From Clostridia bacterium (lineage in GTDB: Bacteria; Bacillota; Clostridia; Oscillospirales; CAG-272), in contig JAFTJZ010000026.1 of the NCBI GenBank assembly GCA_017456145.1, positions 124,001 through 188,000 of the forward strand: a stretch of DNA of 64,000 nucleotides. The letters are read 5' to 3'. Under the pieces are notes generated by a model. That model was not told the DNA's origin, did no database searches, and was given only the letters and a program-made list of their open reading frames with translations. Made by a program: the position numbers and the translations under genes. Of this stretch, positions 5,376 through 63,120 are shown piece after piece. The stretch's first letter is position 1, and the number at the start of each line of letters is the position of its first letter.

Positions 5376-7352
5376 TTAATATTCGTAGAACAAGATCAAG
5401 CCGGTGCGGATGGGGAGAGTGACGGTAAAGCCTGCGCGGAGCTGATCAGCGGTGAGGATGCGGGTATTGCCCGTTTCACGGTCGACCATGGTATACGTCG
5501 CGCCCTGATGGATGCAAGGGAGCTTGACAAGGAAGGTATCCTCGGGAGTTTGTGTATTTCGAATGACCTGTACAAAGCCGCGGCGGGTAGTCGGCTCGTC
5601 AAACTGCATAGCGTAAAAATCCTTGGGATCGCAGCGGCACTCGGTCATCGGGAAATAGTCTCCGGTCAACTCAAGCTCGGCTGCTGCGCGCCAGATCGGA
5701 ACCATTTGACGCGCCTGCTCGTACATGGTCTCGGTCTCCTTGTAATGCAGCATTTCCGTCATTGCGGGTGTGAGCGCACAGTGATAAGCATATTTATCGG
5801 TGGGTCTGCCGCCGCCCACGTATGAGCCGTCAGCAGCATTGTCCCAGTTCATGTTGTGCGCACGGAAATAGGGAATCCACTCAAACATTTCGCGATGCTG
5901 CTTTTGCTTGATGGGGTGCTTGCCATAACCAACGTCCGTGTAGTGCAGTGTGACCGCACGGCGCATCGTTTCCAGATCATTGCGACGGCCACCGCTGGCA
6001 CAGGAGTCGATCCAAAGACCGGGATTACGCAAAACCAACGCATCCCAATATGCGAGATATCCCTGCGCGTGAGCATTTTCCAGTATACCAATGCGGTCAG
6101 GCGCCTCGTTTTGGGCCCAGATGGGAGCGGGATCGAAGTTGAAATCCTGACGATAGAGGTGAACGTGAGACTCTTTGATCAGAGCGTCAACGTGCTCGAT
6201 CAGCCAATGCAGCGCCTCGAGATTGGCGAGGTTGAGCAGGCGGTCACCGTCGGGGTTGCCGTCAGCATCGCGATGATAAAGCAGCCAGTCGGCATGCTCG
6301 CGCTCCAGCCATTCGCCGTCGCGTACACGCTCGGGCTCAAACCACAAAAGCAGCTGGACGTCATGCTCCTCGCAAGCCTTGCCGATCGGGGTAAGTCCGT
6401 TGGGGAAACGTGTAGGATCGGGTGTCCACAAGCCTGTGCGCGTCCAATCGTAGTTGCACGGATACCAGCCGGCATCGACCCACCAGATGTCGGGCTTGAC
6501 ACCGCGGCGGACATATTCCTCCAGCGCCTCGATCTGGTTGCTCTCGCTGGCCCCCGTAAATTCCGGCTTATCCTCCGCCATGAAATGATGCATACAGAGC
6601 TTTGGAGGAACGGGCTGTCCGTTTTCACGGGGAAGAATGTGCTTAAAATACCAGGATCTCCAAAGGTTAATACCGCGCCAAGGAGCATCTGCGCTGGTGT
6701 AAATCATCAAATTGAGGCGAGGGGTGCGATATGTCTCTCCGCTGTGCAGCACCGTGTGGCAGCGATCCTGCCCGCAGGTGAAGACGACACCGCCCTCGGT
6801 GGGATCGATTCGAGCCGCCCACTTGGTCGGCCAGCCGATGGCTGCACGGATCTCGCAATCCGCACCGTGCAGTGTCATATAAGGAAATGCTCCTTGGCAA
6901 GAGGTGCCCGAAAAGGGGGTTTTGTAAATGCTGTGATCTACTGACTCGGTCGTGAAATGATAACCATCCTCGCCGCAGGTGTCCCCGTTTCCGTGCTCCA
7001 ATACGGGGGAAGGGCAGCCAAGGGCACCACCGATCTGTACCTCGGAGAGAACTGGTGTGTCGAACTGTCCTCGATTACTGAGCCAAGCGACCCACTCGGT
7101 GACAGGAAAATCACGATACTCCAGATATTCCACGCGGATATGCAGACCGTCGGCATTTTCTCCCTCGATGATGCACTGCTTGACGTTGGTGTTCAAAAGA
7201 CGAGTGGCAACGGTGGGAGAAAATTCCTCAGGTATACCGCAGATCATACGATCGCCAAGGCGGAAATGCAGCGGGATGGCGGCGGGCGTTGTAAAGGGGA
7301 GAATGCGGTCCAGAAGAGCCATGTCGGCTTTGGTAATGCGATAATTGCTCAT
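5376..7352 (-). CDS. alpha-galactosidase, glycoside hydrolase family 36
   Basis: 658 aa, with no signal peptide, so probably cytoplasmic. It removes terminal alpha-1,6-galactose from raffinose-type sugars, galactomannan fragments or host glycans. Domain order fits GH36: an N-terminal beta-sandwich (to about 240), then a (beta/alpha)8 barrel with WWVDAGWY (about 290-297), LLWFEPERV (about 335-343), the nucleophile region LYRQDFNFDP with Asp403, and SCASGGRRNDLE with the acid/base Asp459. Both catalytic aspartates are present. It lies 43 bp downstream of an EamA transporter gene in the same direction, so the two form an operon driven from 8363-8391. It is slightly shorter than the tetrameric 730-aa GH36 enzymes. 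Confidence 0.93.
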   Translation of the reverse strand: MSNYRITKADMALLDRILPFTTPAAIPLHFRLGDRMICGIPEEFSPTVATRLLNTNVKQCIIEGENADGLHIRVEYLEYRDFPVTEWVAWLSNRGQFDTPVLSEVQIGGALGCPSPVLEHGNGDTCGEDGYHFTTESVDHSIYKTPFSGTSCQGAFPYMTLHGADCEIRAAIGWPTKWAARIDPTEGGVVFTCGQDRCHTVLHSGETYRTPRLNLMIYTSADAPWRGINLWRSWYFKHILPRENGQPVPPKLCMHHFMAEDKPEFTGASESNQIEALEEYVRRGVKPDIWWVDAGWYPCNYDWTRTGLWTPDPTRFPNGLTPIGKACEEHDVQLLLWFEPERVRDGEWLEREHADWLLYHRDADGNPDGDRLLNLANLEALHWLIEHVDALIKESHVHLYRQDFNFDPAPIWAQNEAPDRIGILENAHAQGYLAYWDALVLRNPGLWIDSCASGGRRNDLETMRRAVTLHYTDVGYGKHPIKQKQHREMFEWIPYFRAHNMNWDNAADGSYVGGGRPTDKYAYHCALTPAMTEMLHYKETETMYEQARQMVPIWRAAAELELTGDYFPMTECRCDPKDFYAMQFDEPTTRRGFVQVIRNTQTPEDTFLVKLPCIHQGATYTMVDRETGNTRILTADQLRAGFTVTLPIRTGLILFYEY

Positions 7353-7395
7353 GGTCGAAATTCCTTTCTGTTATGTATTTGACATATTAAGGGGA

Positions 7396-8325
7396 TCAAA
7401 GGAAGAGGAAGGTGGATGCAAAGCATAACACGATGCCGATCGTCGCACGGCGAGAGAGCTTTTGCTTGAACAAGAGCAGCCCGGCGACAGCGGTCAGAAC
7501 GATGGTGCCACCTGTAACAAGAGGATAGAGCACGGTGGCGGGCAGATGGGATGCGCCGATCAGCTGCAAAAGGTAGGAAAGACCATCGACTGCAGCGCTG
7601 GCGACCATGATGCCGAAGATGGGCAGCTTGATTTTGACCGGGGCAGGGCGGCTCAGGGGCGGGAGCTTGCCGTCACGCAGACGGATGATAAGATAAACAA
7701 CCGAGAAGAAGATAACACGAATGATAGCCGTCAGCATGACAAACGTCTGAGGATTGACAGCCATGTCGACATTGGTATCCAGCTGGTGAATCTTGGAGGT
7801 GATGCTGGTCATGCCATTGAGGCAGAAAACGATAGCACAAAGGACAAAAAACATTGTGGAGGATTTTTTCTTCTCGCCATCCTCGCTCTTGTTGTCGTCA
7901 AGTCCCGAGAGGATGATCGAGACAACCATCAGAATCAACCCCAGCAAGCGAAGAATCGAAAATTCCTCATCCAGGAAAATAAGGCCATAGAAATAAGGCA
8001 GCATCATACCACCGAGCATCAGAAACAGCGTATAAACGGCGATATTCCCCATGGAAATGATCTTGAATCCGATCACGGAATAGCTGCCGCAGAAAAGTGC
8101 CAACAGTGCAGCCATCAAGATGGAGAAGGGCGTGATGGAGATAGAAAAGCCATTCATAAAACCGTTGATGAAAAAGAAGATGACGGCGGTGCAGGCGGCG
8201 GTGATGATGTTGAAGATCACGATCATGCGACTACCGCTGCCAACATGGTTCTGATAGATCTTGTTGAGGGAAAAGTTGACAGCAAGCCCGATCACAGCGA
8301 GCAGCACGAGAAAATAATAAAACAT
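7396..8325 (-). CDS. EamA/DMT superfamily transporter
   Basis: 309 aa made almost entirely of about ten hydrophobic helices arranged as two halves of five, the layout of drug/metabolite (EamA) transporters in the cytoplasmic membrane. The first helix begins at residue 2. A charged loop (DDNKSEDGEKKK, about 142-153) separates the two repeats. The ATG follows CGGAGGACATCTGTTC, and the promoter TTGACT-17-TAAAAT lies about 40 bp upstream. It is co-transcribed with the alpha-galactosidase, which suggests a sugar or its product as substrate, although family members carry very different solutes. Confidence 0.85.
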   Translation of the reverse strand: MFYYFLVLLAVIGLAVNFSLNKIYQNHVGSGSRMIVIFNIITAACTAVIFFFINGFMNGFSISITPFSILMAALLALFCGSYSVIGFKIISMGNIAVYTLFLMLGGMMLPYFYGLIFLDEEFSILRLLGLILMVVSIILSGLDDNKSEDGEKKKSSTMFFVLCAIVFCLNGMTSITSKIHQLDTNVDMAVNPQTFVMLTAIIRVIFFSVVYLIIRLRDGKLPPLSRPAPVKIKLPIFGIMVASAAVDGLSYLLQLIGASHLPATVLYPLVTGGTIVLTAVAGLLLFKQKLSRRATIGIVLCFASTFLFL

Positions 8326-8362
8326 GAACAGATGTCCTCCGTGTTGAAATAATGTTGCTGTA

Positions 8363-8391
8363 ATTTTATCATATGAACTCGCTTAAGTCAA
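8363..8391 (-). promoter_or_regulatory. promoter of transporter-alpha-galactosidase operon
   Basis: On the minus strand, TTGACT (8386-8391), a 17-bp spacer and TAAAAT (8363-8368), 38 bp upstream of the transporter start. Confidence 0.8.
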
Positions 8392-8430
8392 GGGATATTT
8401 GAAATTTTATATATGATTTTTTTATTGGCT

Positions 8431-8467
8431 GTTATATAAAAAGCTCCCCGATCTTACGGTCGGGGAG
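8431..8467 (-). terminator. spo0A terminator
   Basis: On the minus strand, the stem CTCCCCGA/TCGGGGAG (8460-8467 with 8444-8451) is followed by CTTTTTATAT, just after the spo0A stop codon. Confidence 0.85.
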
Positions 8468-8473
8468 GGAATG

Positions 8474-9259
8474 TCAATACAGCTTATATCGCAGTCGCAA
8501 ATTGTCTGCGATCATGGCGATAAATTCGGAATTGGTCGGTTTTCCGCGATTGTTCTGAATGGTATAACCGAAATAGGAATTGAGCGTGTCAACGTCACCG
8601 CGATCCCATGCGACCTCGATCGCATGGCGAATGGCTCTCTCGACCCGAGAGGTCGTCGTGGCGTATTTCTTGGCAACGCAGGGATACAGCACCTTGGTTA
8701 CGGAATTGATGATATCGCTGTCCTGCACGGTCATCAATATCGCCGTACGCAGGTATTGATAGCCCTTGATATGAGCGGGAACCCCGATTTGATGGATAAT
8801 TTTGGTGACTTGCGTTTCGATATCGGGAGTTTTTTCGTTCTCGGGGGAGGTGACGGCGTAGATCCCTGCGTCAGCACGCTTGGTGGCGATCTCCTCAATA
8901 TGTTCGCAAAGGCTCCCCATATGAATGGGCTTGAGCAAGCACATTTCTGCGCCTGCATTGGTGGCTTGAACGAAGATATTTTCGTTGGAGACTGTGGACA
9001 TCATGACGATCGCGGGGGTGCGGTCCGGGGAGAAGTCCATATTCTGAACCGAGCGCAGTACGCCGATGCCGTCCATTTTCGACAGCCAAACGTCCATTAG
9101 AATAATGTCGGGGTGATTTCGTGTGATGCGGGAGAGCGCCTCCTCTCCATTGGATGCCTCTTCAATGTGGCGGTAGCCTGCGCGGGCAAGGCCCTCGCGG
9201 AGTGTTGCGCGTTGGGATTGACTTTCGTCGGCAATGAGTATGCGGGTGGTATATTCCAT
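8474..9259 (-). CDS. spo0A: sporulation response regulator Spo0A
   Basis: 261 aa. Spo0A is the phosphorelay-controlled master regulator that commits cells to sporulation. The receiver domain (1-125) has the acidic pair at 11-12, the phospho-acceptor Asp56 in IILMDVWL and Lys110 in LLKP. After a linker, the DNA-binding effector domain (about 150-261) carries [12 protein letters not shown] and ends with the family hallmark [18 protein letters not shown]. The ATG is preceded by CGGAGGACATAACTC, with a TTGATT-17-TAAAAT promoter upstream. It has its own terminator and is monocistronic here; spoIVB, often its upstream neighbour in Firmicutes, is absent. Confidence 0.97.
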
Positions 9260-9303
9260 GAGTTATGTCCTCCGTTCCATGGTGGTGAATTTTTGACACC
9301 CTT

Positions 9304-9332
9304 ATTTTACCATAAAATGGAAAAATAATCAA
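9304..9332 (-). promoter_or_regulatory. spo0A promoter
   Basis: On the minus strand, TTGATT (9327-9332), a 17-bp spacer and TAAAAT (9304-9309), about 45 bp before the start. No clear sigma-H element or 0A box was recognised by eye. Confidence 0.65.
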
Positions 9333-9467
9333 GATATTACCAAAAATAATATTAAACAAACTTTTCATTCCAAAATTGGTAAAATTATACAAATATAGCG
9401 AATATACCTATGAAACGGCGGTTTTTCGATCGAAATATGCTCTATACCGCGAAATTCAGACAGGAAA

Positions 9468-9595
9468 GGGCTGCCATTGGCGCAGCCCCTGCGCAAAATC
9501 TTTTCACCTGCAAAGCAAGCAAAAATTGCGGTGTTCAACCGCAAAGCAAAAAAGGGAGTGAGTTTCCAATGCCTTATTTGCATTGGACTCACCCC
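9468..9595 (+). repeat. dispersed two-hairpin repeat, copy A
   Basis: Between rluB and spo0A. Hairpin 1 is GGGCTGC..GCAGCCC (9468-9488). The middle carries TTGCGGTGTTCAACCGCAAAGC, a segment shared with copy B. Hairpin 2 is GGGAGTGAGT..CCAATGC with GCATTGG..ACTCACCCC (9554-9595). Read on the minus strand, hairpin 2 is followed by CCCTTTTTTG and probably terminates rluB. The rest of 9333-9467 shows nothing recognisable. Confidence 0.8.
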
Positions 9596-9614
9596 TTAAC
9601 CGGCAATATTATTC

Positions 9615-10439
9615 TTAGTCGCTCTGAGAAGGCTTGGGAACGCGAATTTTGACGCGTGCGGGCGCCTCAACCTCCTTGGCGGGAGGCTTACGAGAGAGAT
9701 TCTTCAAAGCGGCGACTTCCGCGGGCGCCAGACGACGATAACGACCTTCGGGCAGATGCCCAAGGACAAGAGGGCCGAGCGCTACACGGTGCAAAGAGAG
9801 CACACGTAAGCCGACCTGCTCGCACATTTTTCGTATCTGACGATTACGCCCCTCGGTCAACGTCATTTCAAGCTCGGTTTTGTGCTCCCATCCGCGCAGC
9901 AAATTGACCTTGACCGGGCGCAATCGATATCCGTCAATGGTCATGGGGGAGGAGAGCCGTTTCAATTGTGTCGGACTGACCTCACCACCCACGGCGACAT
10001 GATAGACCTTTGGCAGATGATGGCGAGGGTGGGTCAGAAGATTGGCGAGCTCCCCGTCATTGGTCAGAAGTAAGAGCCCGGTGGAAAACATATCCAATCT
10101 GCCCACAGGGTAGACGCGAACGCCAAGGTCGCTTACAAGCTCCGTGACGCAAGGGCGACCGCGGTCATCGTTGGCGGTCGTGACAAAGCCGGCAGGCTTA
10201 TGGAGCATTACGGTGACGTGATCGGCGGGCGGCAGGGGGCGGATGGGCTTGCCCAGATAGGTCACGACATCGGCACTCGGATCGATTTTTTGCCCGATGC
10301 CCGCAGGAACGCCGTTGACCTGCACCTTACCTGCGAGGATTTCACTCTCGGCAGCGCGGCGGGAGAGTATACCGCAATCGGTAAAATATTTTTGTATTCT
10401 GATTTTTTCGGTGTATTCGGATTTCTTTTCAATTTCCAC
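9615..10439 (-). CDS. rluB: rRNA pseudouridine synthase, RsuA/RluB/E/F family
   Basis: 274 aa. It isomerises a specific uridine to pseudouridine in rRNA. An N-terminal S4 RNA-binding domain (about 13-60: IRIQKYFTDCGILSRRAAE) precedes the catalytic domain with YPVGRLDMFSTGLLLLTNDG, where the Asp is the nucleophile, and the later motif LTEGRNRQIRKM. The start is a GTG at 10437-10439 with AAAGGG about 11 nt upstream, a rather long spacing, so an internal start is possible. The last 25 residues are basic and variable. It follows dacF by about 40 bp at the end of the scpA-scpB-gerW-dacF cluster, the common order in Clostridia. The exact target within the family (RluB-like, 23S) is inferred. Confidence 0.9.
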   Translation of the reverse strand: MEIEKKSEYTEKIRIQKYFTDCGILSRRAAESEILAGKVQVNGVPAGIGQKIDPSADVVTYLGKPIRPLPPADHVTVMLHKPAGFVTTANDDRGRPCVTELVSDLGVRVYPVGRLDMFSTGLLLLTNDGELANLLTHPRHHLPKVYHVAVGGEVSPTQLKRLSSPMTIDGYRLRPVKVNLLRGWEHKTELEMTLTEGRNRQIRKMCEQVGLRVLSLHRVALGPLVLGHLPEGRYRRLAPAEVAALKNLSRKPPAKEVEAPARVKIRVPKPSQSD

Positions 10440-10478
10440 GTTTTTTGTATCCCTTTCCGTGCAGTTGTTGCGGTGTTG

Positions 10479-11750
10479 TCAAGCTTTTGATGAGAATAAT
10501 GTTTGAAAAAAAGTGAGGATGCGAGATAATAACGTCGGCGCGGGAAGTGGCTCGACATCATACATGGCGTGCAAGGGGACGGCTGCAATCTCTTCTTTGG
10601 TGCCGTTGTTGTCAGTGTCGCAAAGAAAGATCAGCCTGCCGATCTCGCTTTGCGCCGCAACGGGAGCCAGGAGAAAGCGAGGGAGCTCAACGCGGCACGT
10701 CAGAGCACCGTGGTCGCGCGGTAAAGTCAGTGCTGCATCAAGGCGATTGGTGACCATGACATATCCCTCCTTACCGCCGCTGACGGGGAGCAACGTCTGA
10801 TATTCGCCCATAGAGCAAAGCGTGACGTGTGTATAGCGGGAAAAACCGTAATCCAGCAGCGTTGTATGATCGTTCCAATCATCGGGAGCGTTGAGAGTTA
10901 CCGCGATCAAGGTCAAGCCGTCTCGCTCTGCTGCGCTGACAAGACAACGTCCGCTGCGCTTGGTGTAGCCGGTTTTCACACCGATGGCACCATCATAATA
11001 ACGCAGCATCTTGTTGTGATTGAGAAGAACGCGGGAGCCGACGGGTATTGTGTCCTCATCAACGGTCAAGGAGTCGTCGGTGTCAGCCATATTCGGGTCG
11101 CGCATATCACACAAGGGAATGGTTGCACGGCGGGTGGACATGATCCGCTGCAGAATCGGATGGGTAAGTGCAGCCGCAGCGATCAGACCAAGGTCGTAGG
11201 CCGTTGTGTAATGTGTTGTTGCATCCAGACCGTGTGGATTTTCAAAATGTGTGTCCTTGAGTCCGAGTGCTGCTGCTTTGCGGTTCATCAATACCGTAAA
11301 TTCCTCAACGCTGCCGCTGACCGCGATCGCCAGAGCGACGGCGGCGTCATTGGCCGACTCCAAAAGGAGCCCCATGAGCAGCTGCTCCACCGTCAGCCAT
11401 TCGCCTTCATATAGGTAAATGGAGGAGCCCTCAATCCCCACGGCACGACGGTCAATGCAAACAGAGGTGCTCGGATCGATATTCTCCACCACGACCAGCG
11501 CTGTCATGATCTTTGTCGTGCTTGCCATCGGCAAGCGTGTACGGGCGTTGTGCTCATAAAGGACAGCGCCGCTGTCAGCGTCAAGCAGCAGGGCAGCCTG
11601 TGCAGACAAAGAAAACGGGGCAGATGCCGACGTCAGTGCAGAAACGGGCAGGGGAGTGAGAATGCCGAGGGTCAAAATGACCATAGCAACAAGAACGGCA
11701 AGCATTTGCCGCGTACGGAGTTTCAAAGAGCGGGTGTGTTTTGGCAGCAT
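10479..11750 (-). CDS. dacF: D-alanyl-D-alanine carboxypeptidase (DacF-like PBP)
   Basis: 423 aa, a secreted low-molecular-weight penicillin-binding protein that trims the terminal D-Ala of peptidoglycan stem peptides. There is a basic N-terminus and a hydrophobic signal segment (about 15-38). The active-site triad is complete: STTK (Ser77-Lys80), SAN (132-134) and KTG (259-261). The C-terminal beta-rich domain ends with a hydrophobic or amphipathic stretch (about 400-423, ILTFFQTLF) that could anchor it to the membrane. In Bacillus DacF works on the forespore side to set cortex cross-linking. Its place next to gerW and scpAB supports a sporulation-linked role here. Confidence 0.93.
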   Translation of the reverse strand: MLPKHTRSLKLRTRQMLAVLVAMVILTLGILTPLPVSALTSASAPFSLSAQAALLLDADSGAVLYEHNARTRLPMASTTKIMTALVVVENIDPSTSVCIDRRAVGIEGSSIYLYEGEWLTVEQLLMGLLLESANDAAVALAIAVSGSVEEFTVLMNRKAAALGLKDTHFENPHGLDATTHYTTAYDLGLIAAAALTHPILQRIMSTRRATIPLCDMRDPNMADTDDSLTVDEDTIPVGSRVLLNHNKMLRYYDGAIGVKTGYTKRSGRCLVSAAERDGLTLIAVTLNAPDDWNDHTTLLDYGFSRYTHVTLCSMGEYQTLLPVSGGKEGYVMVTNRLDAALTLPRDHGALTCRVELPRFLLAPVAAQSEIGRLIFLCDTDNNGTKEEIAAVPLHAMYDVEPLPAPTLLSRILTFFQTLFSSKA

Positions 11751-56350: not shown

Positions 56351-57139
56351 ATGGAAGACATGATGAACAATTCACTTCCCGATAACGACGAGCAAAAGCT
56401 GTCCGGTGAGGACGTCGATGTTGTGGAGCGCAGCCCTTTTTTGAAGTGGCTCGATAACTTTTGGTACCATTATAAATGGACGGTCATCATTATTGCTTTC
56501 TTTGCGATCGTTTTGATCGTCTGCGTAGCGCAGATGTTCAGCGATCCCGTATACGATATCAATATCACATATTGCGGTCCGTACGGTTTCAGCGCTGCAG
56601 AGGCTGAGCAGATGTACCTGGATCTTTCCGATGCACTTCCTGCAGATTTGAATGGCGACGGTGCCAAATATGCGGGCTTTATCCGTTATCAGGTCTATTC
56701 CGAGGCAGAGATCGAGGAGGAATGGCGACAGGTGGAGGCCGCAAGAAAAGATGCGGAGGCGAAGGGAGAGGATCCCGGTAAGATCACCTCCTCTATCAAT
56801 CTGGCGTATAACAGCGACCAATATTCGCAGTTTACCAATTCACTCCTGACGGGGCAGTGCTACATCTTCCTTTGCAGTCCTTTTATCTACGAAGAAATGA
56901 AATCGAGCGGTCGCGTCTGCCCGCTTTCCGACGCGCTGGATACCTTGCCAAGCTACGCTAATGACGAGTACACCGTGCTTTTGAAAGACACGCCGATGTA
57001 TCAAAATTCAGAGATCCTTCAAAAGCTGCCCGAAGACACGGTGGTATGCCTTTTGAATGAAATTCCGCAGCTTTTCGCACAAAGCAGTGAGGATGATCAT
57101 CTAAATGCGGTCAACACCTTTGCAGGAATGATCAAATAA
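56351..57139 (+). CDS. single-pass membrane protein of unknown function
   Basis: 262 aa from the ATG at 56351; the ribosome binding site is weak and the gene starts 7 bp after greA, so translation may be coupled to greA. The N-terminal 40 residues are acidic, followed by one membrane helix (about 44-65: WTVIIIAFFAIVLIVCVAQMF) and an extracytoplasmic domain of about 195 residues with INITYCGPYGFSAAEAEQMYL and the acidic segment EAEIEEEWRQVEAARKDAEAK. I recognise no family. It is closed by a terminator at 57145. Confidence 0.72.
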   Translation: MEDMMNNSLPDNDEQKLSGEDVDVVERSPFLKWLDNFWYHYKWTVIIIAFFAIVLIVCVAQMFSDPVYDINITYCGPYGFSAAEAEQMYLDLSDALPADLNGDGAKYAGFIRYQVYSEAEIEEEWRQVEAARKDAEAKGEDPGKITSSINLAYNSDQYSQFTNSLLTGQCYIFLCSPFIYEEMKSSGRVCPLSDALDTLPSYANDEYTVLLKDTPMYQNSEILQKLPEDTVVCLLNEIPQLFAQSSEDDHLNAVNTFAGMIK

Positions 57140-57144
57140 AAAAT

Positions 57145-57193
57145 AACGACTCTCTTTGACTGTCCGTTTGTCGACACAAAGAGAGTCGTTTTT
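57145..57193 (+). terminator. terminator
   Basis: A 14-bp stem AACGACTCTCTTTG/CAAAGAGAGTCGTT (57145-57158 with 57177-57190) followed by TTTC. The next gene has an extended -10 TGGTATAAT near 57208-57216 but no clear -35. Confidence 0.9.
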
Positions 57194-57269
57194 CATTCTT
57201 TTTCTGGTATAATACATTTGCGCGTAGGAAACTTAAAAATTTACGCCAAAAAACGAAAGGGGAAGAACG

Positions 57270-58103
57270 ATGAAAAACAACAAGATCAAAGCAAAAACCC
57301 GGGTCATCGCCTGTGTGCTTGGATGCACTCTGCTCTTGAGCGGCTGCGCACCGCAAGAGCAAATCAAAGATGACGTGGAGAATACAGGGGCATCCTCCGG
57401 GAACGACACTGCTGTGTATCAGGCACGATTGATGTATTATGAATCGCAGCTGAAGAGTCTGGAAGAGCAGCTGACCACCATGGACGAGCAGATGGCAGAG
57501 CTGCAAGCGGAGTATCTGGAGGAGGCGCAATCGATGCAAGAGGAAATCGAGGCACTGCGAGCCGACAACCAAAGGCTGCAGGAGGAAGTGGAAACAACGA
57601 AACAAAGCAGTAGCGAAGGAGACGCGCAAAGCGGCAATGACACTCCCAAAAATCCGGAGCCGCATCCGGAAAATGTCGGCACGGATCAGAATTCAGATGA
57701 AACACAAGGCAGCGGTAGGGAAGGTGTAACAAGCGCATATACCTATCAAACGACACAAAGCGGAATTATTCTGACAAAGTACATAGGCAAAGACAGTATC
57801 GTTACCGTGCCGGCTGCGTTGGATGGACAGAAGGTGATCGGACTTGCCGACAGCGTATTTGCGGGAACACAGGTCACAAAGGTAGTATTGCCGGAAACCG
57901 TACAAACACTTGGTTGGTTTACCTTCTACGGCTGCACCGCGCTGTGTGAGGTGAGCATCCCCGCGTCGGTCACAAATATCGGTTATGCTTCCTTTGACGG
58001 GTGCAGCAGCACTTTGACATTGACGGTTGCGGAAAATTCATATGCGCAAAAGTATGCAGCCAGCTTTGCGTTGCGTTATACGGTCGCAGACGTGCGATCA
58101 TAA
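57270..58103 (+). CDS. BspA-like leucine-rich-repeat lipoprotein
   Basis: 277 aa. A lipoprotein signal: basic start, hydrophobic core and lipobox LLSGC at about 24-28, so it is anchored to the outer face of the membrane. Residues about 52-110 form a charged coiled coil (ESQLKSLEEQLTTMDEQMAELQ..). After a Ser/Asn-rich linker comes a C-terminal BspA-type LRR_5 segment (about 160-265) with VTVPAALDGQKVIGLADSVFAG, VVLPETVQTLGWFTFYGCTALC and VSIPASVTNIGYASFDGCS. Such proteins are usually surface adhesins or binding modules in gut bacteria. The partner is unknown. Confidence 0.82.
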   Translation: MKNNKIKAKTRVIACVLGCTLLLSGCAPQEQIKDDVENTGASSGNDTAVYQARLMYYESQLKSLEEQLTTMDEQMAELQAEYLEEAQSMQEEIEALRADNQRLQEEVETTKQSSSEGDAQSGNDTPKNPEPHPENVGTDQNSDETQGSGREGVTSAYTYQTTQSGIILTKYIGKDSIVTVPAALDGQKVIGLADSVFAGTQVTKVVLPETVQTLGWFTFYGCTALCEVSIPASVTNIGYASFDGCSSTLTLTVAENSYAQKYAASFALRYTVADVRS

Positions 58104-58153
58104 GTATATACAGTCTGTTCACGCTTTACGCTCAACTGCCTAAAAGCATTTAT

Positions 58154-58220
58154 AAGGAAAAGCGGCACCCGATAAGGTACCGCCTTTCCTTGTGATAGTC
58201 GTCGAATGATCGGCGGCTTA
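58154..58220 (-). repeat. direct repeat R1, 3' of the anti-sigma gene
   Basis: Same sequence as R2 (59556-59617): a hairpin AAGGAAA..GCGG/CCGC..TTTCCTT (58154-58191) and the core GATAGTCGTCGAATGATCGG (58194-58213) followed by CGGCTTA. On the minus strand it forms a terminator-like stem with GCGGTACC. It begins 1 bp after the anti-sigma stop. Confidence 0.8.
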
Positions 58221-58221
58221 T

Positions 58222-58866
58222 TTATTCGTTAAGCAATGCATTGAGATTATCCCAAAATACACTTTCATCAGAATTGCCCATTGAAAGAATTTGATAGTAA
58301 CAATCGTTATACTCAAATTCAGCCGCAAAATTGTATTTATAGGTGGATCCATCTGTCCCACGTTTTTCATATTGAACAGTGACTCCATTAATTATTACCG
58401 TTTCTCCCTCGTCAACAAGATTTGCAATTTTGTTATTGTAAGGGGAAAAATGAATACCAAAACCAAATTCATCTTCGGGCATAATATTCACAAAGCTCAC
58501 GGCGTGATAGTTATTGACATTGTCAAGCTCGTGTACTAACCGCAGTTCGTAATCATTCAAAGTCGCAAAATCAATATTTTCTAACAAAGTATCGTTGCCA
58601 ACTACGGCGGCAAGTTCTTCATAGTTATCAAAGTATGTGTTACTTCTCTCAAAGATTTCATCTTCTGATAAGCACGAATGATAACCTATCAAATTAGGTA
58701 TTGCAAATACTCCTACCATAACAACAAGGCAGAGGCACGCTGCTATCGATGCCCACTTTATCCAAGCGTTCTTTTTCTTCTTTTGCACCTTCTCGGCAGG
58801 TGCAGCCTTCATGATGAGCTCGGGATCAAGACCGCTGAGGCTCATATAAATATTCTTATTCGTCAT
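58222..58866 (-). CDS. putative anti-sigma factor membrane protein
   Basis: 214 aa. It overlaps the ECF sigma gene by 4 bp and is probably its regulator. The N-terminal 30 residues are cytoplasmic (ALGLDPELIMKAAP, then a KKKK patch), one membrane helix spans about 36-54 (WIKWASIAACLCLVVMVGVFAI), and the extracellular part of about 155 residues has repeated acidic and asparagine-rich segments and no recognised domain. The sigma-antisigma layout, topology and translational coupling support the call, but no zinc-binding motif is seen, so this is only inferred. The DNA is visibly AT-rich relative to neighbours. Confidence 0.6.
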   Translation of the reverse strand: MTNKNIYMSLSGLDPELIMKAAPAEKVQKKKKNAWIKWASIAACLCLVVMVGVFAIPNLIGYHSCLSEDEIFERSNTYFDNYEELAAVVGNDTLLENIDFATLNDYELRLVHELDNVNNYHAVSFVNIMPEDEFGFGIHFSPYNNKIANLVDEGETVIINGVTVQYEKRGTDGSTYKYNFAAEFEYNDCYYQILSMGNSDESVFWDNLNALLNE

Positions 58867-59420
58867 ACGTCAAAGCCCTCCTTGTGTAAAAATTCTTTCA
58901 GCTTTTTTCTTGTGCGGAGCAAGAGGACGGTTACGGAGCTTTCTTTCATTCCGTACTCCTCCGCGATCTCGGCTACGGAGCTTGAGTACCAATACCGTCG
59001 CACAAAAACATTCTGCGTTTTGTCGGGCAAAGACCAAACGAACTTATTTAACGCTTCTCTCAAAGCAACACTCTCGCCAATGTTCTCTCCGCTGTCGCCC
59101 GCGGGAATACACTCGGCAAGCTCGTCAAGAACAAGCATCACTTGTCCTCCTCGTTTCTGCGTGTGGTATTCCTCATAACGGTCAAGGGAAAGCTGTCGGC
59201 TTATCATCCCAACGTATGGTTTTAGCGGGTCGGGACGATTGGGTGGAACGGTGTTCCACGTTTTGAGATAAGTATCGTTTACGATTTCTTTTGCATCTTC
59301 GTCATTTTCGAGAATGCGATATGCGATGTAATGGCAGTACCGTCCGTACTTCTTTTCAGTTTCGGATATAGCAGACTCCGAGCGCTCAAAATATAGATCT
59401 ACTATCTGCTTATCTTCCAT
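58863..59420 (-). CDS. ECF-type RNA polymerase sigma factor
   Basis: 185 aa. Sigma-2 region: SETEKKYGRYCHYIAYRILENDEDAKEIVNDTYLKTWN (about 19-56). Sigma-4 region with the helix-turn-helix: ALREALNKFVWSLPDKTQNVFVRRYWYSSSVAEIAEEYGMKESSVTVLLLRTRKKLKEF (about 120-178). ECF factors direct transcription in response to envelope signals and are usually held by a membrane anti-sigma factor, here the overlapping gene. The ATG follows GAAAGGAGTGTGAGTT. No convincing sigma-A -35 lies before it, so it may be autoregulated. Confidence 0.92.
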   Translation of the reverse strand: MEDKQIVDLYFERSESAISETEKKYGRYCHYIAYRILENDEDAKEIVNDTYLKTWNTVPPNRPDPLKPYVGMISRQLSLDRYEEYHTQKRGGQVMLVLDELAECIPAGDSGENIGESVALREALNKFVWSLPDKTQNVFVRRYWYSSSVAEIAEEYGMKESSVTVLLLRTRKKLKEFLHKEGFDV

Positions 59421-59555
59421 AACTCACACTCCTTTCGTGTGTTCTTGAAGGTCCTTCACCCTAAATAACGGGAAAATTACCATCCACACGACACTCTGAC
59501 GAAAACTTTTTTATATTATATCATATTTTTTCTAAATATATGTGAACTGAAATCA

Positions 59556-59617
59556 AAAAGCGGCACCCGATAAGGTACCGCCTTTCCTTGTGGTAGTCGT
59601 CGAATGATCGGCGGCTT
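59556..59617 (-). repeat. direct repeat R2, 3' of the lipoprotein gene
   Basis: Near-identical to R1: AAAAGCGGCACCCGATAAGG and the core GGTAGTCGTCGAATGATCGG. On the minus strand it gives GCGGTACC..GGGTGCCGC followed by TTTTTG, a terminator for the lipoprotein gene. It separates the lipoprotein unit from the sigma/anti-sigma unit. Confidence 0.8.
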
Positions 59618-59618
59618 G

Positions 59619-60242
59619 TTATTGAGAACTTTGCAACTCTGCAACTTCATCTAAAGATGTAACTAACTTAATATCTCCAACCTCTGCGTTTCCAAGCAAT
59701 AATCCATTTTGGGCAATAGTCTGAATTGCAATTACTTCATAATCACCAAGTGGCTCAACGGTTTCAAGTCGTATAAACATTTCTCTGAATATGTTTCGGA
59801 AAGTTTGAGCATTGACCTGCGATTCTGTCGGTATAATTGCTCGGAGTACAGCAAATGACAGTTCAGAGCTTGGCGTAAATTCAATCACTTTATTATTGAT
59901 CTTAATTATTTCGCTATCAATTTTAATAGTTATTTCCTTGTCCTTATCGGGTACAGCATCATATAATTGCATAATATCAAGCCGTAATTCTCTGCGGAGC
60001 AGATTATGCCAAACATACACGGTCTGAATCGTATCTGTTTCGGTTTTAGTAATCGCATAAGCAAACAACGCTTCATTTGGCAGGAGCATTTCTTCAATTA
60101 CATCATCGTTGGGATCATTTCGATCTTGGCTATTAAGCATATATGATGAAAAGAAAGCGTAGTTTTCTGACGACTTGTTGCACCCCGAAAACGCCGCAAG
60201 GCACAGAGTTATTGCAAATATCGTCAATAATATTCGTTTCAT
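59619..60242 (-). CDS. lipoprotein of unknown function
   Basis: 207 aa. The N-terminal signal has the lipobox AAFSGC (about 16-21), so it is a membrane-anchored extracytoplasmic protein. The mature part is acidic and mixed alpha/beta, with DDVIEEMLLPNEALFAYAI and IIPTESQVNAQTFRNIFREMFIRL; no known domain was recognised. The DNA is AT-rich compared with neighbouring genes. GGAGACAAAT precedes the ATG, and a partial copy of the same repeat (R3) lies just upstream. It is flanked by R2 and R3 in the same orientation, suggesting insertion or duplication of a module. Confidence 0.7.
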   Translation of the reverse strand: MKRILLTIFAITLCLAAFSGCNKSSENYAFFSSYMLNSQDRNDPNDDVIEEMLLPNEALFAYAITKTETDTIQTVYVWHNLLRRELRLDIMQLYDAVPDKDKEITIKIDSEIIKINNKVIEFTPSSELSFAVLRAIIPTESQVNAQTFRNIFREMFIRLETVEPLGDYEVIAIQTIAQNGLLLGNAEVGDIKLVTSLDEVAELQSSQ

Positions 60243-60260
60243 ATTTGTCTCCTTTTTTAT

Positions 60261-60287
60261 GATAGTCGTCGAATGATCGGCGGGCTT
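60261..60287 (-). repeat. direct repeat R3, partial, before the lipoprotein gene
   Basis: Core GATAGTCGTCGAATGATCGG (60261-60280) followed by CGGGCTT. On the minus strand it lies just before the ribosome binding site of the lipoprotein gene. Its other side reads GGAGAATAAAT, close to the CGAATAAAT that ends the anti-sigma gene at R1, so it may mark the 3' end of a lost gene. Confidence 0.65.
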
Positions 60288-60319
60288 AATTTATTCTCCA
60301 AGTAAGGTGCAGGAAAAAA

Positions 60320-60391
60320 CGCAAATTCCGCGCGGCAAAAAAGCCTATCGTCGGAATTTTTACGTAGGGGCTGCGCCAATGACGCAGCCCC
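60320..60391 (-). repeat. dispersed two-hairpin repeat, copy D (partial)
   Basis: Hairpin 1 GGGGCTGCGccaatGACGCAGCCCC (60367-60391). On the minus strand it continues through CCGACGATAGGC and CGCGCGGAATTTGCG, segments shared with copies B and C; hairpin 2 is missing. It sits directly after the alpha-mannosidase stop and may end that transcript. Confidence 0.75.
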
Positions 60392-60406
60392 ACATTTGAT
60401 AAATGA

Positions 60407-62962
60407 TTATGACAGTGCGATGGTGAGGATCTTCTTTGCGGGAACCTCAATGACCAGCTTGCCGTCCTTGATCGGGAGTGCCTCAAGCTTTTCCTCTCCC
60501 ATGGTAGTCAGAGCCGCGGTCTTGTACGCCTCGCCAAGCGAGATGGTCAGCGTGACGGTATGTGTGTCGGTGTTGAACAGACGCATGATGGTGGCACTGC
60601 TGTCCTCAGCCTTCTTGAAAGCAGACATACGGATGTACTCGTTATCGAAAGCAACGTAATCGGCCTTTGCGGGAGCAGAGCCTTCGTGAATGCCCGTACC
60701 GATCGCAAGAACGGCATTGCCGGCAAAGACGTAGCCAAGCCCGTAAGCCTCAGCCTGCTTGTCGGTTTCGTAAGGAACAACGGCATACTCCAGCGTGTAC
60801 TCGCCCTTGCATTGACCCTTCGGCGTGGGGAATTTACCCCAGTCACCGATCTCACCCACGCAGCGCAGCAGCGTGATGGCGATGGTATTCTTACCATTGC
60901 GCAGTATCTCATACTCGCAAAGTCCGCGGTTGGCGACCATCAGCGCGTCGCCGCCGTTGTCTGTCTCCAGCGTTACAAACGCCTGATCTCTTTGCGTGTT
61001 ATAGGGGATTCTCCAGGTGTGCGCGGGCTCGATACTGCGGCGAACCACGTCAAACTGACCCTCTGCAAGAACCGTGGTCGTCTGAATCTCGCTGTCAAAC
61101 AGCGCGCGGATGCGGTGGTTCTCAGCGCGGTTGTTGACGACCGTGCGGACGTCGGCACGGGCAACACCGTCGGAGAGTGTGACATAAGTGGTGATATCCG
61201 CATCCATGGCAATGTCGATCACTGCTTTGAAGGTGACGGAGTAGGGAGTGACCTTGTCCAGCGTGATGGTAGCCTTGGTGTCGGCGTTGGTCACGGGGAT
61301 ATCGCCCTCAACGGGACCGTAGTTATAAAGGTTACCGTAATCCTTGGTATCCTCAAACAGGTTCTGTGCAGCGTATACGCGGCCGGAACGCTTGTTGGTC
61401 AGATCGAAGGTACCGTTCTCGTTGAACTGAACGCGGACGTACTCGTTCTCCATGTAATCATTGCCATATTTGATGGCGGTCTTGAGATCGGCAGCCTGCT
61501 TTTTAACACTGTAGACCGAATATCCGATGCCGTGCGTTCTGACCTGCATCTCAACCTCAAAGCGATTGACGTACTTGGGTTGACGGAAACGGTCGTCGGG
61601 CAAGGTGTAGGTGAACTGGTTTCTGATGAGCTTGGTTTCAGCGGGAACGGGATTGCCGTTCTCATCAAAGATGGCAATGGCCTCAACCATATCGTCTTTC
61701 TCAAAATCAACGTTGGCGCGGACAGTAATGACAGAGTCGTTGGGCTCAAGGGAAAGAACGACGATTGCATGGTCGCCACCGCATCCCGAGGTGTCCACGG
61801 CAGCTGCCAGATAATCAAGAGAGCCGTCGCGCAAGCCCTCGCCGCAGGCGATGGACTTGGCAAAGCGCTGTTTCATCTCGTCGTAAATCTCGTCGCAGGA
61901 GCAGGAGCATATGGAGTCGTGCGGATGGTTCTGCATCAGCTTACGCCAAGCGTAGGTGAAGAAATCCTGCTTATACTTGCCGCCGTTGAGCATGGCAAGC
62001 ACGGAGACCGGCTCGGCAATTCTCTCCAGCAGATGCTGTGCGTCGTGGTTGTCCTGCTTGATGTCCACGCGCGCGGATGCGGTGTTGATCAGAAGGTTAT
62101 GCCCCGAGGTCAGCTGACCTGCGATCTCACCCTCGAAAACGCTGAGGTTATCCTTATTCTTGCGGATTTCCTCGATATATTCACCGAAGTTGGACTGTTT
62201 GACGACAACCTCGTCCTGTACCTCGTTAGCCAGCTTGATGGCCTTGTGAAGATCCATCTGAATGGGCTGATGGTCGCAGCCGTTCATACCGAGCAGGTGA
62301 TCGGTGGTGGCAAAACGGGAGGTGGAGGCAACGATATGCTTGAGTCTTTGCTTAAGCGCTTCGGGCTCGGTGGGGAGCTCCATAGCGTTGTGATACCAGT
62401 TGGCAAACATAACGCCGATGATCTCGGAGCCGTCGGGAGAGCGCCAGATGATCTCGCTCTTGGTCATGCCGTTTTGTTTGACGACCTCATTGTCCGTGCC
62501 GATGTCGTTGACACCACGACCGAAAATCGCGTTGTCAAAGCCGAAACCGCGCACGATCTGCGGCGCCTGAGAGACGTTACCGAAGGAATCGGGGAAGTAG
62601 CCGCTGTGAACGGGATCGGCGCCGATCTCCTTACAAAAACGGATGCCGTAGAGCATATTGCGGACGTTCGCCTCGCCGCTGGTGAGGTATTCGTCCTGCA
62701 GCTGATACCAAGGACCGATCTGAATCCGTCCTTCGCGGATCAGCTTATACAAACGATCCTTCATCTGAGGACGAATCTCCAGATAGTCCTCAACCACGAT
62801 GAACTGGCCGTCCATGTGATAATACGTGTAGTCCTCGTTTTCCTCCATGACCTGAATGAGATTGTCAAACAGATCGATCAAGCGAATGCGGTGCTTTTCA
62901 AAGGGAAGATACCACTCTCTGTCCCAATGGGAGTGAGGAATGATGTGCAACGTCTTTTTCAT
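60407..62962 (-). CDS. alpha-mannosidase, glycoside hydrolase family 38
   Basis: About 851 aa from the ATG at 62962 (AAAGGAGTAGTGATC before it); upstream in-frame codons lie in the promoter region. It removes alpha-linked mannose from glycans or their fragments, probably in the cytoplasm because no signal peptide is present. The family N-terminus is HIIPHSHWDREWYLPFE with zinc ligands His12 and Asp14, and GYFPDSFGNVSQAPQI carries the nucleophile/ligand Asp125. A helical middle (HDSICSCSCDEIYDEM, with the fourth ligand His) and a large C-terminal beta-sandwich follow. It has a TTGACT-17-TATAAT promoter and is monocistronic. Confidence 0.93.
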   Translation of the reverse strand: MKKTLHIIPHSHWDREWYLPFEKHRIRLIDLFDNLIQVMEENEDYTYYHMDGQFIVVEDYLEIRPQMKDRLYKLIREGRIQIGPWYQLQDEYLTSGEANVRNMLYGIRFCKEIGADPVHSGYFPDSFGNVSQAPQIVRGFGFDNAIFGRGVNDIGTDNEVVKQNGMTKSEIIWRSPDGSEIIGVMFANWYHNAMELPTEPEALKQRLKHIVASTSRFATTDHLLGMNGCDHQPIQMDLHKAIKLANEVQDEVVVKQSNFGEYIEEIRKNKDNLSVFEGEIAGQLTSGHNLLINTASARVDIKQDNHDAQHLLERIAEPVSVLAMLNGGKYKQDFFTYAWRKLMQNHPHDSICSCSCDEIYDEMKQRFAKSIACGEGLRDGSLDYLAAAVDTSGCGGDHAIVVLSLEPNDSVITVRANVDFEKDDMVEAIAIFDENGNPVPAETKLIRNQFTYTLPDDRFRQPKYVNRFEVEMQVRTHGIGYSVYSVKKQAADLKTAIKYGNDYMENEYVRVQFNENGTFDLTNKRSGRVYAAQNLFEDTKDYGNLYNYGPVEGDIPVTNADTKATITLDKVTPYSVTFKAVIDIAMDADITTYVTLSDGVARADVRTVVNNRAENHRIRALFDSEIQTTTVLAEGQFDVVRRSIEPAHTWRIPYNTQRDQAFVTLETDNGGDALMVANRGLCEYEILRNGKNTIAITLLRCVGEIGDWGKFPTPKGQCKGEYTLEYAVVPYETDKQAEAYGLGYVFAGNAVLAIGTGIHEGSAPAKADYVAFDNEYIRMSAFKKAEDSSATIMRLFNTDTHTVTLTISLGEAYKTAALTTMGEEKLEALPIKDGKLVIEVPAKKILTIALS

Positions 62963-63011
62963 GATCACTACTCCTTTAGTGTAATCGTTGCCCCCGCAGG
63001 GGATTTGGTTT

Positions 63012-63040
63012 ATTATACCATGGGACGGGCAGCAAGTCAA
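63012..63040 (-). promoter_or_regulatory. alpha-mannosidase promoter
   Basis: On the minus strand, TTGACT (63035-63040), a 17-bp spacer and TATAAT (63012-63017). The leader contains the hairpin CCCCTGCGGGGG just before the ribosome binding site. Confidence 0.82.
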
Positions 63041-63091
63041 GCATTCACGAAAAAGATTTTCGAATATTTGAAGGATTTTTTTGAAAATCTC

Positions 63092-63120
63092 TTGCATTGC
63101 GATACAAGATGTGCTATAAT
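63092..63120 (+). promoter_or_regulatory. promoter of the HPr-kinase-like gene
   Basis: TTGCAT (63092-63097), a 17-bp spacer and TATAAT (63115-63120), 37 bp before the start codon. Confidence 0.75.

What the first reader, a model, noticed from the sequence alone, without database searches (positions are those of the whole stretch)
58154..60293. Repeat-delimited sigma/anti-sigma and lipoprotein modules that look like cassettes
Three direct copies of one sequence (core GATAGTCGTCGAATGATCGG) sit at 58194, 59592 and 60261, all in one orientation. They bracket two leftward AT-rich units: an ECF sigma factor with its putative anti-sigma factor, and a lipoprotein. R1 and R2 also share the preceding terminator hairpin. 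R3, in front of the lipoprotein, carries beside it an ORF-end-like GAATAAAT that resembles the end of the anti-sigma gene, as if a third gene had been lost. This pattern suggests modules exchanged or duplicated by recombination at a shared 3' element. The repeat and order are read directly; mobility is inferred.
Basis: partly seen in the sequence, partly recalled or inferred. Interest (0 to 1): 0.75.

Follow-up and report, generated by a model that had tools for sequence, protein, structure and literature searches.

The report
Shuffled sigma-operon modules with shared 3' repeat
Three copies of a short repeat in a gut-type bacterium mark the downstream edges of sensor-type gene units; in related genomes the genes in front of this repeat differ as whole blocks while the regulator genes upstream stay nearly the same, which could let bacteria re-wire what an existing regulator senses.

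Summary
The repeat is real: three same-orientation copies (58194, 59592, 60261; 0.01 expected) and only four in the genome (up to two mismatches), so it is not a common terminator. I collected 22 copies from 13 genomes; 18 begin within 31 nt of a stop codon, mostly in ECF sigma/anti-sigma/lipoprotein operons, and 21 are followed by a terminator or by the next gene's ribosome site. In seven genome pairs DNA homology (88-95%) covers sigma and the first 43-49 anti-sigma codons and then stops; in six it resumes at the repeat, in one at an island end. One cassette is 97% identical in two genera with different neighbours, bounded by the repeat at both ends. In the window GC falls from 46.7% to 35.2% across that seam. 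In two relatives such an operon lies in a 2-4 kb element behind guaA; the window copy does not. So "exchanged modules" is supported by relatives, but the seam is two-sided (anti-sigma membrane codons and 3' repeat) and mobility is not shown in the window. Homology-driven exchange is my best mechanism; a recombinase acting on the 22-bp dyad is not excluded.

The parts
58158..58217 (-). R1: 22-bp dyad core (58196-58217) plus spacer and terminator hairpin, directly 3' of the anti-sigma gene
   Evidence: (44.1 bits)
58222..58735 (-). anti-sigma gene, variable part (presumed extracytoplasmic sensor), GC about 35%; no DNA homology to G337, whose sigma is 95% identical
58736..58866 (-). anti-sigma gene, conserved 5' part (about 43 codons, up to the presumed membrane segment WIKWASIAAC), GC about 47%
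   Evidence: weak DUF4179 match below cut-off
58863..59420 (-). ECF sigma factor
   Evidence: Sigma70_r2/r4; TIGR02937
59421..59555 (-). presumed promoter region of the sigma operon; part of a block 91% identical to G337 over 824 nt
   Evidence: no promoter scan run
59556..59615 (-). R2: core plus terminator, 3' of the lipoprotein gene
   Evidence: (45.2 bits)
59619..60242 (-). lipoprotein (MKRILLTIFAITLCLAAFSGC...), no family match; its last 52 aa and the following R2 match a shortened copy on G000 contig C23
60251..60284 (-). R3: core followed by the lipoprotein's ribosome site; no terminator, no ORF ending just before it
   Evidence: (35.2 bits)
57270..58103 (+). left flank: lipoprotein-like gene, syntenic in G001
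60407..63097 (-). right flank: alpha-mannosidase-like gene (name from recall), syntenic in G001

Best explanation
The window holds one complete and one truncated copy of a family of modular signalling operons. The 5' scaffold (promoter region, ECF sigma, first 43-49 codons of the anti-sigma gene) is kept. The payload (sensor part of the anti-sigma protein and/or small lipoprotein and membrane genes) is replaced as a block. The 3' edge is a conserved 22-bp imperfect dyad (AGYCGYCGA-TCAT-TCGRCGRCT), usually followed by a terminator. Shown: block-wise mosaicism with seams at the anti-sigma membrane codons and at the repeat. Inferred: the exchanges are made by homologous or homology-assisted recombination between horizontally acquired copies, the repeat being the 3' homology shared by otherwise unrelated modules, so that an old sigma factor gets a new sensor. 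In the window R1 and R2 end two such units, and R3 is the stump of a unit whose upstream genes are gone. A role for the repeat itself as an enzyme's recombination site is possible but unproven.
For: In seven pairs DNA identity of 88-95% runs up to anti-sigma codon 43-49 and then stops; in six it resumes at the repeat. Sigma proteins 89-95% identical carry anti-sigma C-termini without similarity and mostly of different length. The MEQRK cassette (L040/L042) is 97% identical over 461 nt with different neighbours; mismatches are 7/36 in the outer halves of its two bounding cores against 7/422 inside, Fisher 2.4e-5. GC drop at the seam: mean 7.8 points in 9 modules (8 with the repeat, 1 without from the same kind of island) against 0.6 in 33 other paralogues, p=2e-4. 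18 of 22 copies within 31 nt of a stop codon. Patchy presence: 12 of 395 family genomes, own included and one judged chance; 0 of 5 other genomes of the own genus. Vehicles: elements at guaA.
Against: One related pair (L044/L047) keeps homology through most of the anti-sigma gene. In L040/L042 the matching second operon of L042 has no repeat; homology resumes at the island end instead. Two of nine modules show almost no GC drop (1.1 and 1.8 points). Only one cassette was caught core-to-core. Some lipoprotein payloads share their signal-peptide DNA, so part of the exchange could be anchored there. In 3 of 14 loci (L039, L045, L049) no sigma gene was seen upstream. The window array has no clean empty site: G001 has another gene there. 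Most operons of the same sigma family that I fetched lack the repeat. No recombination was observed; the genomes are drafts in many contigs.
Confidence: 0.62

Rival explanations
1. The 22-bp dyad is the site of a dedicated site-specific recombinase, an integron-like system in Clostridia that places genes 3' of a sigma/anti-sigma operon; each gene carries its site behind its stop codon.
For: Site directly after the stop codon in most copies, one orientation per operon, flanks on both sides variable; dyad arms 7/9 identical (36 of 20000 shuffles, fixed centre); L042 array core-gene-core-gene-core-gene-core-terminator; breakpoints inside the bounding cores; the bottom strand can fold (91.4% of cells paired, against 67.9% on the mRNA strand).
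Against: No attC R boxes in any of 22 copies; no recombinase tied to the repeat: no tblastn hit in the window for the two recombinase sequences tried, IntI itself not searched; some payloads start inside the anti-sigma gene with no site there; no compensatory changes and pairing not above shuffles.
Confidence: 0.15
2. The repeat is a conserved post-transcriptional element (3' stabiliser, processing site, part of the terminator) kept by selection; gene differences are unrelated gain and loss.
For: 12 of 22 copies are followed by a terminator by my reading, strong in all seven that I folded; the repeat lies between cistrons in nine others.
Against: The core folds no better than shuffles on the mRNA strand in the two copies without terminator (z -0.36 and 0.33) and keeps C-A mismatches; no Rfam match reaching its gathering score in 57000-61000; among 27 further loci, most with operons of the same sigma family, the only match was L157, a locus of an already known copy; does not explain the seam within the anti-sigma gene.
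Confidence: 0.13
3. Ordinary tandem duplication of one operon followed by divergence.
For: The sigma family is large in these genomes (14 matches in G000, 42 in G325 at E<=1e-25); R1/R2 97% alike.
Against: The lipoprotein and the sigma/anti-sigma genes of the window give no match to each other; abrupt DNA boundaries between genera; GC break.
Confidence: 0.06
4. The repeat is a small mobile element (REP/MITE-like) that inserts after stop codons.
For: Palindromic, after stop codons, and a GTAG foot on the bottom strand in 15 of 22 copies (resemblance to REP recalled).
Against: At most 4 copies found per genome, one orientation relative to the genes, mostly at the same kind of operon; REP elements are numerous and scattered (recalled).
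Confidence: 0.04

Closest known systems
Integron gene cassettes (attC)
   Same: Genes followed by an imperfect palindromic site, all in one orientation, assembled behind a fixed 5' part
   Different: No attC R boxes, no integrase linked to the repeat, some payloads are spliced into the anti-sigma reading frame; repeat seen only in one clostridial order in what I searched
RsiV/RsiP-type DUF4179 anti-sigma factors (ECF30)
   Same: ECF sigma plus anti-sigma factor; weak DUF4179 match over residues 30-87; DUF4179 reported in ECF30 anti-sigma factors RsiV and BAS1627 (PMC6066255, passages)
   Different: Match is below Pfam's cut-off; sensor parts match no family convincingly
RsgI anti-sigma factors of Clostridium thermocellum
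   Same: Nine paralogous anti-sigma factors said to sense different substrates (PMC12203970, abstract start in listing)
   Different: Different sigma class (SigI, recalled); no shared 3' repeat known to me
Integrative elements at the 3' end of guaA
   Same: Some relatives' operons sit right behind guaA with a 13-bp direct repeat of its end; guaA 3' end is a tyrosine-integrase ICE site in streptococci (PMC4701971, passages)
   Different: 2-4 kb, no integrase seen inside by reading the ORFs; the window array is not at guaA
Polymorphic toxin C-terminal replacement (recalled)
   Same: Fixed N-terminal part, variable C-terminal part exchanged as a block
   Different: Here sensors and lipoproteins, not toxins, with a defined 3' repeat

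Membership tests
Integron cassette array | attC site with R'/R'' boxes (GTTRRRY / RYYYAAC, motifs recalled) | tested here: not met
   0 of 22 copies (36-nt rows of A1) contain either box
Integron cassette array | cognate integron integrase (IntI) | not tested
   IntI model not run; only two other recombinase sequences were compared with the window
Integron cassette array | cassette = ORF plus 3' site, same orientation, exchangeable | tested here: met
   L040/L042 cassette core-to-core with different neighbours; one case only
ECF sigma / anti-sigma pair | sigma regions 2 and 4, no region 3 | tested here: met
   PF04542 and PF08281 above cut-off, 185 aa, no region 3 family listed
ECF30 / DUF4179 anti-sigma | DUF4179 domain at gathering score | tested here: not met
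   20.5 bits against cut-off 30.1
guaA-integrated element (relatives) | direct repeat of the guaA 3' end at both boundaries | tested here: met
   GAGTGGGARTAA at both ends in L040, L041 and L108; in L042 only for the second, repeat-less element, whose left boundary is the end of the preceding one
guaA-integrated element (window array) | located behind guaA | tested here: not met
   no guaA end near the array; guaA is on contigs C101 and C110
REP/BIME element | many dispersed extragenic copies (recalled) | tested here: not met
   4 copies in G000 at up to two mismatches
Intrinsic terminator | stable GC hairpin followed by T run | tested here: met
   R1 and R2 yes, with short T runs; R3 no; the terminator scan was not run

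The most novel reading that the evidence does not exclude
The 22-bp dyad is the recombination site of an unknown, integron-like cassette system in gut Clostridia whose purpose is to plug new sensors, lipoproteins and small effector genes into ECF sigma operons, with guaA mini-islands and ICEs as carriers.
Probability: 0.15. Interest if true: 0.9.

Novelty: new variant of a known kind. Interest (0 to 1): 0.6.

Why it matters
How bacteria give an existing regulator a new input is an open question. Here a sigma factor stays almost unchanged between genera while the sensor part of its anti-sigma factor is exchanged at a fixed seam, and a DNA mark shows the downstream edge. That makes sensor swapping traceable by sequence and gives a way to find the many unnamed payload genes in gut metagenomes. 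Small elements at guaA that carry such operons, and CBASS genes next to an end of the same type, suggest a small-cargo mobile pool there.

Tried and rejected
Common terminator genome-wide: rejected, four copies in G000; a sequence model of 22 copies gave 1 match in 27 further loci, in L157, which is the contig of L012 again. Phage or plasmid origin: no match in plasmids or phages, no exact 18-mer in viral contigs; a looser pattern gave 3 viral hits without the flanking sequence of the repeat, judged chance. Rfam: two sub-threshold matches only. mRNA hairpin. Another 3' repeat in the other paralogue operons: shared 18-mers only in groups that I take for homologous or duplicated stretches. Empty site of the own-genome C23 copy: the relative's contig ends. 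Integrase in trans: a relative of the G026 integrase (E<=1e-50) in 5 of 31 genomes, absent from 6 of the 9 genomes with mini-island ends, so those islands may be fossils. Structure prediction was not run.

Rows dropped: G104 (2 mismatches, no such operon; L043) was left out of the 22 copies; one of the 22 (L042:2206) has 4 mismatches and was kept because of its place. L010, L013, L015 (actinobacterial-type and acidobacterial records, no stop-codon/terminator context) judged chance. Of 41 sigma matches in L151-L170, 38 had an anti-sigma ORF that my script could call; five of these (three of L157, L167, L159_1472) were left out, so 33 were used. The set of nine modules left out L039, L045, L049-L051, the first operon of L042 and the second of L047; scaffold limits were set slightly differently for the two groups.

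Full report
Observation. The three copies are real, same-oriented and far above chance. R1 and R2 share 65 nt including a strong terminator; R3 has only the core. The genome (G000, 2.92 Mb, 117 contigs) holds one further copy at up to two mismatches, on contig C23, behind another ECF sigma/anti-sigma/short lipoprotein operon. On the gene strand the order is stop codon, GCCGCCGATCATTCGACGACTAYCACAAGGAAAGG, then terminator (R1, R2); R3 has no gene before it and is followed by the ribosome site of the lipoprotein gene.

Distribution. With up to two mismatches the pattern occurs in 12 of 395 family genomes (9 of 71 genera; own included; one, G104, I judge chance) and in 4 of 394 order genomes, of which own and G026 were already counted; the reversed control gave none. 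A stricter pattern found only the own genome among 391 of the class. Nothing in plasmids or phages. Presence is patchy, also within genera: 0 of 5 other genomes of the own genus, 2 of 12 in genus g3.

Anatomy. I aligned 22 copies from 13 genomes (86% mean identity over 36 nt, 93% over the 22-nt core). By my ORF calls, 18 of 22 start within 31 nt after a stop codon; the exceptions are L040:6307, L047:6161, L047:6982 and R3. In 11 of 14 loci a sigma gene lies upstream or in the array; in L039, L045 and L049 none was seen in the stretch fetched. Downstream, 11 have the common terminator, one (L051) another terminator type, nine a ribosome site and start codon within about 60 nt, and one (L046) neither clearly. 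Thus the flanks vary on both sides and the 22-bp dyad is the constant. On the mRNA strand the core hairpin is weak and 67.9% of cells pair; on the other strand 91.4% pair, partly through G-U type pairs, but without compensatory changes and not above the shuffles. This argues against an mRNA hairpin and is neutral to mildly favourable for a DNA-level role.

Block structure. DNA comparison of 15 chosen pairs shows seven in which homology runs through sigma and stops at anti-sigma codon 43-49: window/G337, L044/L048, L048/L047, L012/L046, L012/L042, L042/L046, L040/L042 (second operon). In the first six it resumes at the repeat; in the last, whose L042 operon has no repeat, it resumes at the island end. 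In window/G337 sigma is 95% identical; the DNA block is 91% over 824 nt, then nothing for about 510 nt (window) or 1140 nt (G337), then 88% over core and terminator. The seam is the presumed membrane segment WxKWASLAAC, whose DNA is similar even between sigma groups (35 nt at 88.6% in L012/L047). The replaced parts include soluble-looking and multi-membrane-helix sequences (my reading) and mostly match no Pfam family. L044/L047 is the exception, with homology through most of the anti-sigma gene, and some lipoproteins share signal-peptide DNA.

Cassette exchange. L042 reads anti-sigma, core, zinc-ribbon-like gene (DUF6487), core, MEQRK gene, core, lipoprotein, damaged core, terminator; L040 reads another anti-sigma, core, MEQRK gene, core, terminator. 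The MEQRK unit is 97% identical over 461 nt, limited by the cores. Mismatches concentrate in the outer halves of the bounding cores (7/36) against the inside (7/422), Fisher 2.4e-5, so the breakpoints most likely lie within the cores. This does not tell homologous from site-specific recombination, since the cores are the only homology there. The KYKGPL lipoprotein (L047_lipo3, L048_lipo, L049_lipo) occurs in three contexts, and a 219-aa gene of L047 looks chimaeric. GC drops at the seam in the window (46.7 to 35.2%) and on average by 7.8 points in nine modules, against 0.6 in 33 other paralogues (p=2e-4; two of the nine show almost none).

Vehicles. In G325 and G158 a repeat-bearing operon lies in an element of about 2.5 and 4 kb directly behind guaA, with a repeat of the guaA end (GAGTGGGARTAA) at both boundaries. 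In G373 the repeat-bearing element has the right end, its left part being off the contig, and is followed by a second, repeat-less element; guaA of G373 was not recovered. G110 has the left end behind guaA and, further on, a repeat-bearing operon, but its contig ends before a right end. G134 has the left end and a sigma/anti-sigma operon without a repeat in the stretch seen, and a right end on another contig. G337 has ends of the same type away from guaA. G270 has a 2.0 kb element with other cargo, and G026 has a right end next to CBASS genes and a tyrosine integrase. In all, the left end follows guaA in 6 of 24 genomes with a guaA match, 30 searched, and a right end occurs in 7 of 48. The guaA 3' end is a known ICE site in streptococci (PMC4701971, passages). 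I saw no integrase in the ORFs of the small elements (reading, not every ORF scanned), and a close relative of the G026 integrase is missing from 6 of the 9 carriers. The window array is elsewhere, in a neighbourhood of housekeeping genes (gene names there are my reading); in G001 both flanking genes are syntenic but an unrelated gene lies between. So the site is variable, but how the window copy arrived is unknown.

Interpretation. Inferred: exchange by homology-driven recombination of horizontally moved copies, giving a kept sigma factor a new sensor. An enzyme acting on the dyad is possible; the attC box test fails and no enzyme was found, though IntI was not searched. Literature searches for a cassette or sensor-swap description found none on this (six papers listed, none on it by title and abstract start; none; open-licence library only, so this is weak).

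Noticed in passing
L110 (G026:C3), 6269-10497: CBASS-type genes (SMODS nucleotidyltransferase, SAVED-HNH) lie before a guaA-type att end, beyond which lies a tyrosine integrase; the same element end as the sigma mini-islands.
   Followed up: partly
L108 (G270:C4): A 2.0 kb guaA element of the same ends with an HTH regulator and a membrane protein (both by reading; the latter matched no Pfam family), no sigma factor or integrase seen.
   Followed up: partly
G000 contigs C101/C110, C25/C94, C33/C92: guaA and sigma loci with the same scores on pairs of contigs, identical flanks where compared, genome larger than its congeners and 7.5% contamination: the assembly may hold redundant or second-strain contigs.
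   Followed up: no
G325, G158, G337: Large sets of one ECF sigma family (42, 29 and 21 matches), on G325:C266 four copies about 1.7 kb apart (L151).
   Followed up: partly
L047:6204-6863: A 219-aa protein whose first half matches L045_g4 and whose last third matches the KYKGPL lipoproteins: likely gene fusion.
   Followed up: no
L045, L050, L051: A second downstream type of the repeat (YAAGCGAACACGGTGGTAC...), in L051 a full terminator, in L045 and L050 cut off by the next gene.
   Followed up: partly
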